Source of the DNA: Acidobacteriota bacterium
GTDB taxonomy: Bacteria > Acidobacteriota > Terriglobia > UBA7540
Assembly: GCA_004298155.1 (NCBI GenBank)
Contig: SCRD01000012.1
Span: forward strand, 434,001-498,000
DNA length: 64,000 bases
Reading direction: 5' to 3'
Position 1 is the stretch's first letter. Each line of letters opens with the position of its first letter. The notes under the pieces are model-generated. The model did not search any database and had not been told where the DNA came from. It was given only the letters and a program-made list of their open reading frames with translations. This document shows positions 33,395 to 37,975 of this stretch, in pieces. Both the position numbers and the translations under genes were made by a program.

Positions 33395-33437
33395 TGTGAT
33401 CTCCGTCACATCGCCAGGCAAATCCAGTTGCTATAAG
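33395..33437 (+). promoter_or_regulatory. CRP-type operator with class II promoter geometry
   Basis: TGTGA at 33395-33399 and TCACA at 33406-33410 flank six bases: a perfect TGTGA-N6-TCACA core of the CRP/CAP site. A TATAAG -10 box is at 33432-33437. With initiation near 33444, the site centre is about 41.5 bases upstream, the classic class II position, and no good -35 is present, as expected for an activator-dependent promoter. Downstream is the Cys-rich membrane protein at 33460, with ribosome site AAAGGAAGG. The activator itself is not in the window. Confidence 0.65.
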
Positions 33438-33459
33438 CAGGATAGAAAGGAAGGTTTCT

Positions 33460-34044
33460 ATGGGCAATTTAATCTACTGGGTCCTCATGGGGACCGTCGC
33501 CGCCGTATTAGGGTACTTACTCTACCGCCTTTACGACAGTGCAAAGACCTACTACCGCTTTCGAGGCAAGAGGCTGGTGACATGCCCTGAAACCCACAAG
33601 ATTGCGGCCGTCGAACTCGATGCCGAAGCAGCTGCCCGCGAGGCGTTCACCCGCAAACCACGGATCCAATTGGCTGAGTGTACCCGCTGGCCTGAACGCA
33701 AAGACTGCGGGCAAGGTTGCCTTTCCGAAATCGCAGAGTCGCCTTCCGACTGTCTTGTCCGCAATATTGTCATCGATTGGTTTACCGACAAGAAATGTGT
33801 GTACTGCGAAAAACCCATTGCCGAAGTTGAAGAGTGGTGGGTGGACCACAAACCGGCGTTGCTGACGCCGGAAAGACAGATTGTCACCTGGAACGAATTT
33901 GCCGCAGAGCAGTTGCCCGAAACGTTTGAAAAATGCCAGCCAGTTTGCTGGTCATGCGCCGCGACTGAGACGTTCCGAAAGGAGCGTCCAGAACTGGTCA
34001 GCGACAGGGCCCCAACCCCCCTGAGGATCCAACACATCAAGTAG
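33460..34044 (+). CDS. Cys-rich membrane-anchored protein of unknown function
   Basis: A 194-residue protein with one N-terminal membrane helix (about 4-24) and a soluble region holding ten cysteines (42, 74, 83, 87, 98, 113, 116, 159, 163, 166). They are arranged as CPETH (C-x3-H), a C-x3-C (83/87) and two CxxC pairs (113/116 in CVYCEKP; 163/166 in CWSC). This suggests a zinc or iron-sulfur site; no CxxCH haem motif is present. Similar CPETH-type proteins occur in Acidobacteriota from memory, always uncharacterised. The perfect CRP-type site upstream implies control by a cAMP or FNR/CRP-family regulator. It could be a redox-sensing or assembly factor. Confidence 0.75.
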   Translation: MGNLIYWVLMGTVAAVLGYLLYRLYDSAKTYYRFRGKRLVTCPETHKIAAVELDAEAAAREAFTRKPRIQLAECTRWPERKDCGQGCLSEIAESPSDCLVRNIVIDWFTDKKCVYCEKPIAEVEEWWVDHKPALLTPERQIVTWNEFAAEQLPETFEKCQPVCWSCAATETFRKERPELVSDRAPTPLRIQHIK

Positions 34045-34436: not shown

Positions 34437-34656
34437 GTCGCCTCCTCGTGCAGATAGCTCCTGTGTCGGGGTATTTAACCATTGTAGTGACCGTAAATCC
34501 ACAGTTCTTGATTCGGGAAACTTAAACATCTACAGAGGAAACATGGCCTTCCCATTCAGGGAAAACACTACTGTGCTTTATCACAGACCATGCCCAAAAC
34601 TGTTTTGTAGGAACACCAACCTGATAAAATAGAGGCAAATCCATGTGGAAGAAAGG

Positions 34657-34685
34657 TTGAAAAAGTCGCAGGAGAAATATATATC
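34657..34685 (+). promoter_or_regulatory. Putative sigma-70-type promoter
   Basis: TTGAAA at 34657-34662 and TATATC at 34680-34685 with a 17-base spacer; the surrounding sequence is AT-rich. It would drive the secreted-protein and TgpA-like genes starting at 34757. Confidence 0.4.
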
Positions 34686-34756
34686 GTCAGAGGACAAAGC
34701 GTGACGCCCTGCTCCGCACGCCGCATTTAAAAAGCAGGGGAAAGTGGCCCACGAAG

Positions 34757-35665
34757 ATGAACAAGAAGGGTCAATCCTGGTACGTTTCCATTCCTCTCAC
34801 AATGTTATTTGCCGTCCCTTTGCCCCTGCTCGCGCGCTCAAGGCAGGAACCTTCTCTTTCGACAACAAGCATCCACCAGATGGTCGAGAATGTGGCCTGG
34901 AACCAATTGCAGGCTTCCGAACATCCCGCGCACTACTACCGGTTTGTCGAGCGAGACATCTTGCCGGATGGGTCTACCACTGTCGATGAAATTGCGACTC
35001 CGCATGGCAGCGTGGATCGCCTGATTGAAGTGGACCACCACACACCGGACCGGCAACAACTCGCGAAGAATCAACAGTTGCTTTCGCAGCTTCACGGCAA
35101 TACCCAGCTCCAGCAGTCTCGTTTTAAGGACCAGCAGAACGACCGGCAACGACGGGACAATGTGATCAAAGACATTCCGCAGGCTTTCATTTATACCTTT
35201 GACGGCAGAGATCAGCAGGGACGAATCAAGCTGAAGTTTCAGCCTGCCCCTGATTTCCGGCCCAGTTCCCGCCAGTCGCTTATCCTCCAAGGTATGGCAG
35301 GAGAAATGTGGATTGACCCTGCCACCCAGCGTCTGGTGAAAATCAACGGTTCGCTTATCAATGATGTCAAGATCGGGTGGGGCTTCCTGGCAAGGCTGAA
35401 CACCGGCGGTACGTTCCTGATGGAACAGTCGCAGGGACCCGATGGAACGTGGCATCAGAAGCTCCTTTCGGTCCATTTTGACGGGACGGTCCTCCTTCTC
35501 AAGCACATTCACATCCGCGTAAAACAAATTCAGTGCTGCTTCGAACGGGTTCCGGACAATCTGACCATCCGGGGGGCCGTTCAACTTCTGGATACCCGGA
35601 CTACCCTGCCGAAGGAGTGGCAGGCCCGCCTGGAGGCCATCGAGAAGTCCGCTCCACTCAACTGA
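34757..35665 (+). CDS. Secreted protein of unknown function, LolA/outer-membrane-lipoprotein-sorting-like fold possible
   Basis: A 302-residue protein with a Sec-type signal (YVSIPLTMLFAVPLPLLA, about 9-26). The body is predicted mainly beta: FIYTFDGRDQQGRIKLKFQP, MAGEMWIDPATQRLVKINGS and LKHIHIRVKQIQ look like the strands of a LolA/LolB-type half-barrel, and DPATQRLVKI is a common feature in such domains. I do not recognise a named family. There is a charged helical insertion (about 95-135) rich in Gln/Asn. It precedes the TgpA-like gene by 84 bases on the same strand. Confidence 0.65.
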   Translation: MNKKGQSWYVSIPLTMLFAVPLPLLARSRQEPSLSTTSIHQMVENVAWNQLQASEHPAHYYRFVERDILPDGSTTVDEIATPHGSVDRLIEVDHHTPDRQQLAKNQQLLSQLHGNTQLQQSRFKDQQNDRQRRDNVIKDIPQAFIYTFDGRDQQGRIKLKFQPAPDFRPSSRQSLILQGMAGEMWIDPATQRLVKINGSLINDVKIGWGFLARLNTGGTFLMEQSQGPDGTWHQKLLSVHFDGTVLLLKHIHIRVKQIQCCFERVPDNLTIRGAVQLLDTRTTLPKEWQARLEAIEKSAPLN

Positions 35666-35749: not shown

Positions 35750-37975
35750 ATGACGAAAGGACGCACAACCACACCCGCAAGCAATGCCGGACAAAAGCCC
35801 GGAAGCAGCGTTGACCGGTTCTTTGCAGTGTCTTTTCTTCTGATGCTTGGCACCAGCTTCGTAACGCTGGCATCAACCGGAAAGCTGGATATTGTCTCTG
35901 TGGTTCTGGTATTTGCTGCGCTCGGAGTGCGCCTCTGGGGTTATTCGTCGGGGCGAAACTTGCAGATATCCCCAAAAACTGTGACAAGCCTTGCCGTCCT
36001 GTATATCCCTTTTTTCGTTCTCGATTTTCTGTTTTTTTCCGCTGGAACCACTTCCCTTGAAAGCATGCTGAACGCCACGGCCCACCTGGTTCTCTTCGCG
36101 GCGGTCACGAAAGTCTTCTCGGCTGTAACCCGGCAGGACTATGCTTATTTGGCCGCACTTTCATTGCTGATGATACTTGCCACCGCGGTTTTGACGGTCA
36201 AATCAACATTTTTGGCCTTCCTTACGCTTTATATTCTGTTTGCCATCTCAACCCTTATCAGCTACGAAATTAAGAGATCAATTGAGACCTCCGGCCGGGT
36301 TGCATCAGCCCCATTGCCAGTTCTACAGGGCAGGCCTGGAATTGAACACGCCATGTTAGGAGCTGCAGCAGGCCTTGGCCTGGGGACGCTTGCAGCAGCT
36401 TCATTAATCTTCTTCGTCATTCCCCGGTATCGTTCAGGCTATCTCAACAGCATTGGGACCCGCACCGAAAACATCACAGGATTTTCTGGAAGCGTAAATT
36501 TGGGCGACCTCAGCCGCATTATGCAGTCGAGCACCGTTGTGTTTCGTGTCTTGCCTGAGAATAACTTTCGCAATTATACCGGCGTCAAGTGGCGCGGACT
36601 TGCGCTGGACAGCTTTGACGGCCGGCACTGGTACAATGACAATACAAAGCAAATCGCTGTACAGCCGGTCTCACATGGCCATTTCACAATCCCCCGCGAA
36701 CGCGGCATCCAAAATCGACCAGTAAAAACGCTTCGTTACAAGGTGCTGCTCTCTCCTATTTCTTCTGATGTTGTATTTGTCGCCGCATCTGCCCGGATGA
36801 TCACGGGCCCGATGCACTTGTTGACACTGGATGAAACAGACTCCTTGCATGACGGTCGTTATGATTTCTCATCAGTTCAATACGAAGTGATCTCGCAGGT
36901 AGGATTGCCATCGCCATCCACTCTGAAGGCAACCCCGGACACCTACGCAAGGGACATTCGCCTGCTATATCTTCGCCTCCCGCCGAAGATTGACCCTCGC
37001 ATCAAGGTCCTGGCAGAAAAAGTCACATCACCCGCAGACAACAATTACGACCGCGCAGTACAAATCCGCAACTATCTTCGTGATAATTTCGGCTATACCC
37101 TGGAGGAGCAGAAGGTCGATCCGGCCGATCCGATTGGAAGCTTCCTTTTCACAACCCACAATGGTTATTGCGAATACTTCGCTTCAGCCATGGCCATCAT
37201 GCTGAGAACCATCAGCATTCCGGCGCGACTGGTGAACGGCTTCCAGACGGGGTCATACAATCGCTTAGGCAAGGACTTCATCGTGCGCGCTCGTGACGCC
37301 CATAGCTGGGTGGAAGTCTATTTCTCCGGTTACGGATGGATACCTTTCGATCCAACTCCTCCAGACCCGCACCCGGTGATCGCTTCTGGTCTGGATGATT
37401 ACATGGATGCGCTCACGCTTTTCTGGGCCGAATGGGTCGTCAACTATGACTTCTCGCACCAGGTCCGTCTCGCAACGCAGGTCGAGATCCAGTTACACAG
37501 GGTCCATGACAATGTCAGTCATCACTTCTACCGCCTTCGGACTGCGATGGCAGGGCTGGCGCTGAAGCTGGAAGCAGGGCTTGTCGCCCACAAATTTCTC
37601 CTGCTTTTCGTTCTACTCGTAACAGCAGCCGGGATTGCGCTACTAGCAAGTGAATGGAGTATTCAGGAACTCAGATTCATTTTGGCCCTCAAATTTCCCC
37701 GTTCCGACAGGCCATTGACAGTGGAGGAAGCAACCCTCAGCTATCACCACTTCCTGAATATTGTGCGAGAAAAAGGGTTTCTCAAACTGCCGTCAGAAAC
37801 GCCTGAAGAATTTGCAGAGAAGATCAGTCCGCCAACGCTGCGAGGCGCGGCCCGAGAGTTCACCCGTCTTTACAATGCCGCGCGATACGGAGGCACGCGC
37901 CCTTCGCTTCCGGCACTGAGAGGAATGCTTCGAGGAATTTCAGCAGCCTGTGGCCAGGCAAACTTAAAGAGTTGA
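35750..37975 (+). CDS. TgpA-like transmembrane transglutaminase-domain protein (DUF3488/DUF4129)
   Basis: A 741-residue protein. The N-terminal third has about six membrane helices (DUF3488-like). The central periplasmic domain is a transglutaminase-like cysteine protease fold with the catalytic triad Cys474 (NGYCEYFA), His518 (RDAHSWVEVYF) and Asp534 (WIPFDPTPP). One more helix (about 615-640, LLLFVLLVTAAGIALLAS) is followed by a cytoplasmic tail of the DUF4129 type (LPSETPEEFAEKI, FTRLYNAARYGG). This is the complete TgpA architecture. In many bacteria TgpA stands beside a MoxR ATPase and a DUF58 protein; none is in the window. Role: likely peptidoglycan or envelope protein crosslinking. Confidence 0.88.
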   Translation: MTKGRTTTPASNAGQKPGSSVDRFFAVSFLLMLGTSFVTLASTGKLDIVSVVLVFAALGVRLWGYSSGRNLQISPKTVTSLAVLYIPFFVLDFLFFSAGTTSLESMLNATAHLVLFAAVTKVFSAVTRQDYAYLAALSLLMILATAVLTVKSTFLAFLTLYILFAISTLISYEIKRSIETSGRVASAPLPVLQGRPGIEHAMLGAAAGLGLGTLAAASLIFFVIPRYRSGYLNSIGTRTENITGFSGSVNLGDLSRIMQSSTVVFRVLPENNFRNYTGVKWRGLALDSFDGRHWYNDNTKQIAVQPVSHGHFTIPRERGIQNRPVKTLRYKVLLSPISSDVVFVAASARMITGPMHLLTLDETDSLHDGRYDFSSVQYEVISQVGLPSPSTLKATPDTYARDIRLLYLRLPPKIDPRIKVLAEKVTSPADNNYDRAVQIRNYLRDNFGYTLEEQKVDPADPIGSFLFTTHNGYCEYFASAMAIMLRTISIPARLVNGFQTGSYNRLGKDFIVRARDAHSWVEVYFSGYGWIPFDPTPPDPHPVIASGLDDYMDALTLFWAEWVVNYDFSHQVRLATQVEIQLHRVHDNVSHHFYRLRTAMAGLALKLEAGLVAHKFLLLFVLLVTAAGIALLASEWSIQELRFILALKFPRSDRPLTVEEATLSYHHFLNIVREKGFLKLPSETPEEFAEKISPPTLRGAAREFTRLYNAARYGGTRPSLPALRGMLRGISAACGQANLKS

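What the first reader, a model, noticed from the sequence alone, without database searches (positions are those of the whole stretch)
33395..34044. Perfect class II CRP-type site in front of an uncharacterised ten-cysteine membrane protein
The site is an exact TGTGA-N6-TCACA, and a TATAAG box places the predicted start about 41.5 bases from its centre, the classical class II distance. The gene behind it encodes a one-helix protein with C-x3-H, C-x3-C and two CxxC pairs. Together this suggests a metal or redox-related envelope protein under CRP/FNR-family control.
Basis: partly seen in the sequence, partly recalled or inferred. Interest (0 to 1): 0.65.

Follow-up and report, generated by a model that had tools for sequence, protein, structure and literature searches.

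The report
Conserved CRP/FNR site before zinc-type membrane protein
A soil bacterium of the phylum Acidobacteriota keeps a classical CRP/FNR switch site in front of a small, uncharacterised membrane-anchored protein with eight invariant cysteines, and the site recurs before relatives of this gene across the phylum, which points to a role in the response to low oxygen or redox stress.

Summary
TGTGATCTCCGTCACA (33395-33410) is the only exact site in the window and one of 12 in the 5.2 Mb genome (2 for the reversed control). TATAAG lies at the class II spacing before a 194-aa ORF with ten cysteines.

Sites with at most one mismatch lie within 160 nt upstream of 29 of 79 orthologues, against 10 of 307 neighbouring genes (Fisher p 1e-14). 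In the closest orthologues the site sits 57-58 nt (66 in one) from the ATG, and the only base invariant in the 44 nt after it is the expected -11 A.

Within the family, genomes with the site carry a close orthologue of one CRP/FNR regulator with four FNR-like cysteines, encoded beside cydAB and multihaem cytochromes; genomes without the site lack it.

The interpretation needs correcting. Eight cysteines are invariant, C-x3-H is not, and charge bias puts the cysteine domain in the cytoplasm. The family is unnamed; its C-terminal half weakly resembles a degenerate HNH/treble-clef zinc fold.

Most likely: a membrane-anchored zinc or thiol protein switched on by an FNR-type regulator at low oxygen. 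Binding, start site and function are untested.

The parts
33395..33410 (+). CRP/FNR-type operator TGTGATCTCCGTCACA (TGTGAY-N4-RTCACA)
   Evidence: exact match; recurs upstream of orthologues
33432..33437 (+). probable -10 hexamer TATAAG; its A at 33433 is invariant in six orthologous promoters
33444..33444 (+). predicted class II transcription start (inferred, not mapped)
   Evidence: site centre 33402.5 + 41.5
33449..33455 (+). Shine-Dalgarno AGGAAGG
   Evidence: sequence
33460..34044 (+). 194-aa unnamed membrane-anchored cysteine protein
33463..33561 (+). N-terminal helix, residues 2-34, including the membrane span
   Evidence: AF2 model; charge bias
33583..33720 (+). first cysteine cluster C42, C74, C83-x3-C87 (invariant); a putative metal site
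33748..34017 (+). C-terminal domain with C113xxC116, D129-H130-x-P-A-L, C163xxC166; weak HNH/treble-clef likeness

Best explanation
The site is a functional operator of a CRP/FNR-superfamily activator that works class II fashion: dimer centred at -41.5, -10 TATAAG, start near 33444. The likeliest activator is the paralogue at G000:C28:66612-67325 (L022). It has a CRP-like recognition helix (S-R-E-T-V-T-R) but FNR-like cysteines (C-x2-C-x8-C plus one central Cys), which suggests an Fe-S sensor of oxygen or redox state; that sensing step is inferred. The gene makes an inner-membrane-anchored, cytoplasm-facing protein whose eight invariant cysteines most likely form two structural or redox-sensitive Zn(Cys)4-type sites. 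I infer that it serves as a membrane-side thiol/zinc accessory when cells shift to low-oxygen respiration. Shown computationally: site, conservation, geometry, co-occurrence, cysteine invariance. Inferred: binding, activation, signal, metal, role.
For: Site with <=1 mismatch within 160 nt in 29/79 orthologues vs 10/307 neighbour genes; several of the ten background hits are plausible co-targets (malic enzyme, glutamate dehydrogenase, Usp, named by eye). Site centre to ATG is 57, 66, 58, 58, 58, 57 in six divergent orthologues, and offset +23 (-11 A) is the only base identical in all six. The same-genus genome G002 keeps an exact site before a decayed copy. Other exact sites in the genome precede hemA, a TIGR04053 radical SAM/SPASM gene, Usp genes and multihaem cytochromes. 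L022 lies beside cydAB and a cytochrome island. L022 orthologues of >=64% identity are in all 5 family genomes with the site; the best homologue is <=45% in 7 without it. Genomes lacking the site mostly have near-background counts of exact sites. L022 N-terminal cysteines are conserved in its orthologues. Eight Cys invariant in 76 proteins.
Against: 50 of 79 orthologues have no such site within 160 nt, and in Terriglobales the site is 78-147 nt from the ATG with no clear class II -10. G041 and G056 have a 55% L022 homologue but no site before the gene. The co-occurrence covers few genera, so it is not independent. Other CRP/FNR paralogues in the genome also keep R-[ED]...R and could bind. No sigma-70 promoter with a -35 was found, as expected for class II but also for no promoter. 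The -10 is convincing only in the window and L002.
Confidence: 0.55

Rival explanations
1. The site is used by another CRP/FNR paralogue (L023, L024, L020 or L021) responding to NO, CO, a nucleotide or carbon state, not by an FNR-type oxygen sensor.
For: The genome holds five such regulators with an HTH, all with R-[ED]-x-x-x-R recognition helices. L024 and L020 sit near an exact site and a radical SAM gene on C18.
Against: L022 is the paralogue beside the densest group of sites, and its presence tracks the site within the family; the others were not tested this way.
Confidence: 0.25
2. The protein is a membrane-anchored HNH/His-Me-finger nuclease or nucleic-acid-binding protein, not a thiol/zinc accessory of respiration.
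For: Weak Pfam HNH match at 113-131 (E 0.057; 6 of 76 members, best E 0.004). Weak structural matches include many HNH proteins: T4 endonuclease VII Z 3.6 (rmsd 5.2, 68 aligned), Cap5 Z 3.4, Cas9 HNH 2.6-2.9. 41 of 76 members keep His at 130, 159 and 167.
Against: All scores are below the level at which a shared fold is trusted, and unrelated PB1 domains score as high. The window copy has C159 and A167, so only H130 remains. No conserved Asn of the HNH motif was seen.
Confidence: 0.12
3. The site is a chance palindrome or only sets basal expression, and its conservation reflects shared ancestry of upstream DNA.
For: Many orthologues lack it; most sequences come from MAGs.
Against: Orthologous promoters differ nearly everywhere else, including the N6 spacer, yet keep both half-sites and spacing; strong enrichment over neighbour genes; the site also recurs with other spacing in Terriglobales.
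Confidence: 0.05
4. The protein is a c-type cytochrome or electron carrier in the envelope, since most members read CxxCH at 163-167.
For: CxxCH in 59 of 76 members; weak cytochrome matches in a few members.
Against: The window copy reads CWSCA and its close relatives CWSCN and CWSCQ. Charge bias puts the domain in the cytoplasm, where haem c is not attached.
Confidence: 0.03

Closest known systems
E. coli class II CRP- and FNR-dependent promoters (site at -41.5)
   Same: Exact TGTGA-N6-TCACA, -10 at the class II spacing; class II/-41.5 as described in PMC5957442 and PMC4505428.
   Different: Regulator, signal and start site unproven here; cAMP-type control unlikely; distant orthologues use another spacing and often a second dyad 22 bp away.
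FNR-type oxygen sensors (E. coli FNR, ANR)
   Same: Candidate regulator L022 has three N-terminal Cys and one central Cys as FNR does, and lies beside cydAB.
   Different: Cys spacing C-x2-C-x8-C (my recollection for E. coli FNR: C-x2-C-x5-C) and a CRP-like recognition helix, fitting TGTGA and not TTGAT half-sites.
Pfam PF01844 HNH / treble-clef zinc domains
   Same: CxxC...DH..PAL...CxxC order and weak fold likeness of residues 97-186.
   Different: Sub-threshold scores; catalytic residues absent in this copy; membrane anchor and an additional Cys cluster.

Membership tests
CRP/FNR-superfamily operator, class II | palindrome TGTGA-N6-TCACA | tested here: met
   0 mismatches
CRP/FNR-superfamily operator, class II | centre at -41.5 from a mapped start | not testable with these tools
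   start predicted from TATAAG only
CRP/FNR-superfamily operator, class II | site conserved upstream of orthologues | tested here: met
   29/79 vs 10/307; near-fixed spacing in the near clade; absent in some lineages
CRP/FNR-superfamily operator, class II | host encodes a CRP/FNR regulator with matching recognition helix | tested here: met
   five paralogues with an HTH, R-[ED]...R
FNR (regulator L022) | CRP-type effector and HTH domains | tested here: met
   PF00027 and PF13545 over cut-off
FNR (regulator L022) | four Cys ligating a [4Fe-4S] cluster | tested here: inconclusive
   four Cys at comparable places, conserved in most orthologues, with different spacing; the cluster itself is untestable here
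FNR (regulator L022) | meets NCBIfam FNR model cut-off | tested here: not met
   49 bits vs cut-off 228; so 'FNR-like', not filed as FNR
HNH endonuclease (PF01844) | score over Pfam gathering cut-off | tested here: not met
   14.0 vs 21.4 bits
HNH endonuclease (PF01844) | catalytic His/Asn/His set | tested here: not met
   window copy keeps only H130
HNH endonuclease (PF01844) | HNH fold | tested here: inconclusive
   best Z 3.6-3.9
c-type cytochrome | CxxCH in this protein | tested here: not met
   CWSCA

The most novel reading that the evidence does not exclude
The gene founds an undescribed, mostly acidobacterial protein family: a membrane-anchored, cytoplasmic double zinc-site protein built partly on a degenerate HNH finger, held over long distances under a CRP/FNR regulator that joins FNR-like Fe-S cysteines to CRP-like DNA recognition, as a dedicated part of the low-oxygen regulon.
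Probability: 0.3. Interest if true: 0.6.

Novelty: new member of a known kind. Interest (0 to 1): 0.42.

Why it matters
Acidobacteriota are among the commonest soil bacteria, yet the literature searches here turned up no described CRP/FNR regulon for them. This gene gives a conserved operator, a testable regulator next to cytochrome bd genes, and an unnamed protein family (112 loci in one scan) with eight invariant cysteines tied to that regulon.

Tried and rejected
Pfam, NCBIfam and PDB sequence searches gave no family for the protein. Foldseek gave no significant match for the whole model or the C-terminal domain; the first cysteine cluster (residues 36-96) was not searched on its own. cAMP-CRP in the strict sense was set aside because the paralogues lack the cAMP-pocket arginine (my knowledge). 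Haem c was rejected (no CxxCH in this copy, cytoplasmic side). A conserved operon was not found: in the window the gene stands alone between an opposite-strand epimerase and an opposite-strand L-rhamnose mutarotase; neighbours elsewhere vary. A common -10 for the Terriglobales promoters could not be fixed. Literature searches found nothing on this regulon in Acidobacteriota.

Full report
Observation. The site TGTGATCTCCGTCACA stands at 33395-33410 and is exact; with up to two mismatches the window holds 21 matches, as chance predicts, but only one exact one. In the whole genome (G000, 5.2 Mb) there are 12 exact sites against 2 for the reversed control pattern. TATAAG at 33432-33437 puts a class II start at A33444, 16 nt before the ATG of a 194-aa ORF with a Shine-Dalgarno AGGAAGG. 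The scan for classical sigma-70 promoters finds none, as expected where an activator replaces the -35.

The protein has matches in 18 of 61 relatives and 112 loci in GTDB contigs, mostly MAGs of Acidobacteriota. Upstream of 79 orthologues, 8 have an exact site and 29 a site with at most one mismatch within 160 nt; of 307 neighbouring genes in the same loci only 7 and 10 do (Fisher p 0.004 and 1e-14). Orthologues are related, so the p-value overstates independence, but mononucleotide-shuffled upstream regions give 0.2 such sites per set against 15 seen in 120 nt. In the window's clade (L002=L040, L003=L056, L004=L065, L010=L070) and in L017 of another family of the class, the centre-to-ATG distances are 66, 58, 58, 58 and 57, against 57 here (for L004 the upstream ATG is taken as start). 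The spacer and most flanking bases differ, and the only base identical in all six in the next 44 nt is the A at offset 23, exactly the -11 A of a class II promoter. The hexamers are TATAAG, TAAAAG, CACTCT, CATTCT, CATCTT and CAAACT, so the -10 itself is convincing only in the first two. In Terriglobales the site lies 78-147 nt upstream and is followed 22 bp later by a second, degenerate dyad (GGTGA-N6-GCACC); L092 and L109/L117 also show two sites 22 bp apart. Members of genera g3, g4 and g18 lack the site.

Regulon and regulator. Other exact sites in the genome lie before hemA, a TIGR04053 radical SAM/SPASM gene, a variant radical SAM gene, universal stress proteins (three genes at two sites), a decahaem cytochrome and another multihaem cytochrome (318 nt away), among others. 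That is largely a respiration, haem and stress set. Five CRP/FNR paralogues with an HTH were read, all with R-[ED]-x-x-x-R in the recognition helix. One, L022 (C28:66612-67325, minus strand), lies beside cydAB, a NapC-like protein and multihaem cytochromes, with three exact sites and a one-mismatch tandem pair 22 bp apart in the same 30 kb. Orthologues of L022 with 64-100% identity are present in all five family genomes that have the site; the seven site-less family genomes searched reach at most 45%, and most of them have near-background numbers of exact sites. Beyond the family the link is looser: G041 and G056 have 55% homologues and no site. L022 orthologues keep C-x2-C-x8-C at the N-terminus and mostly a central Cys. 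E. coli FNR uses four Cys for its [4Fe-4S] cluster and Glu209/Ser212/Arg213 for its TTGAT box (PMC4505428); L022 has S-R-E-T-V-T-R, closer to CRP. L022 does not reach the NCBIfam FNR cut-off, so it is called FNR-like only.

The protein. It belongs to no Pfam or NCBIfam family. AlphaFold2 with 76 sequences gives pLDDT 89 and pTM 0.77: one long N-terminal helix and a compact soluble part. Lys/Arg average 4.6 after the helix and 0.04 before it, so the soluble part should face the cytoplasm. The C-terminal domain modelled alone (pLDDT 88) has only weak matches, many of them HNH nucleases (T4 endonuclease VII, Cap5, Cas9 HNH; Z 2.6-3.6), in line with a weak Pfam HNH match. The motif order CxxC...DHxPAL...CxxC fits a treble-clef zinc finger, but this copy lacks the other catalytic His. 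Two Zn(Cys)4-type sites are the simplest reading of eight invariant Cys in a cytoplasmic domain; an Fe-S cluster is not excluded.

Decay in a sister species. G002 of the same genus keeps an exact site at the syntenic place, but the gene behind it has lost its start and membrane helix and is frameshifted. So the gene appears dispensable in at least one lineage.

Verdict. The kind of control is ordinary; the protein family and the regulon are undescribed as far as searched.

Noticed in passing
L018 (G002:C168, around 34581-34773, minus strand): A sister species carries a decayed copy of the gene behind an intact exact CRP/FNR site, at the syntenic position next to the same epimerase.
   Followed up: partly
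G000:C28:48000-80000 (L175, L176): Island with a DmsE-type decahaem cytochrome, multihaem and NapC-like cytochromes, a large protein that may be an outer-membrane barrel (no Pfam match), cydAB, an FNR-like regulator, Usp genes and several CRP/FNR sites.
   Followed up: partly
L104:313-702, L083:4567-4938, L037:648-1013: A second unnamed family of about 125 aa with conserved Cys/His (NYGYPYR.HPCxEC...PCHxIPL) lies directly upstream of the gene in five loci, and a member lies beside CRP/FNR sites in this genome.
   Followed up: partly
L045-L086 upstream regions, L092, L109, L117, G000:C28:66523 and 66545: CRP/FNR-type sites occur in pairs 22 bp apart (two helical turns), the second often degenerate (GGTGA-N6-GCACC).
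   Followed up: partly
window 35750-37972 and L056, L065, L070: A TgpA-type transglutaminase gene lies 1.7 kb downstream in the window; a 736-aa gene that looks like its relative follows the cysteine protein directly in three relatives.
   Followed up: no
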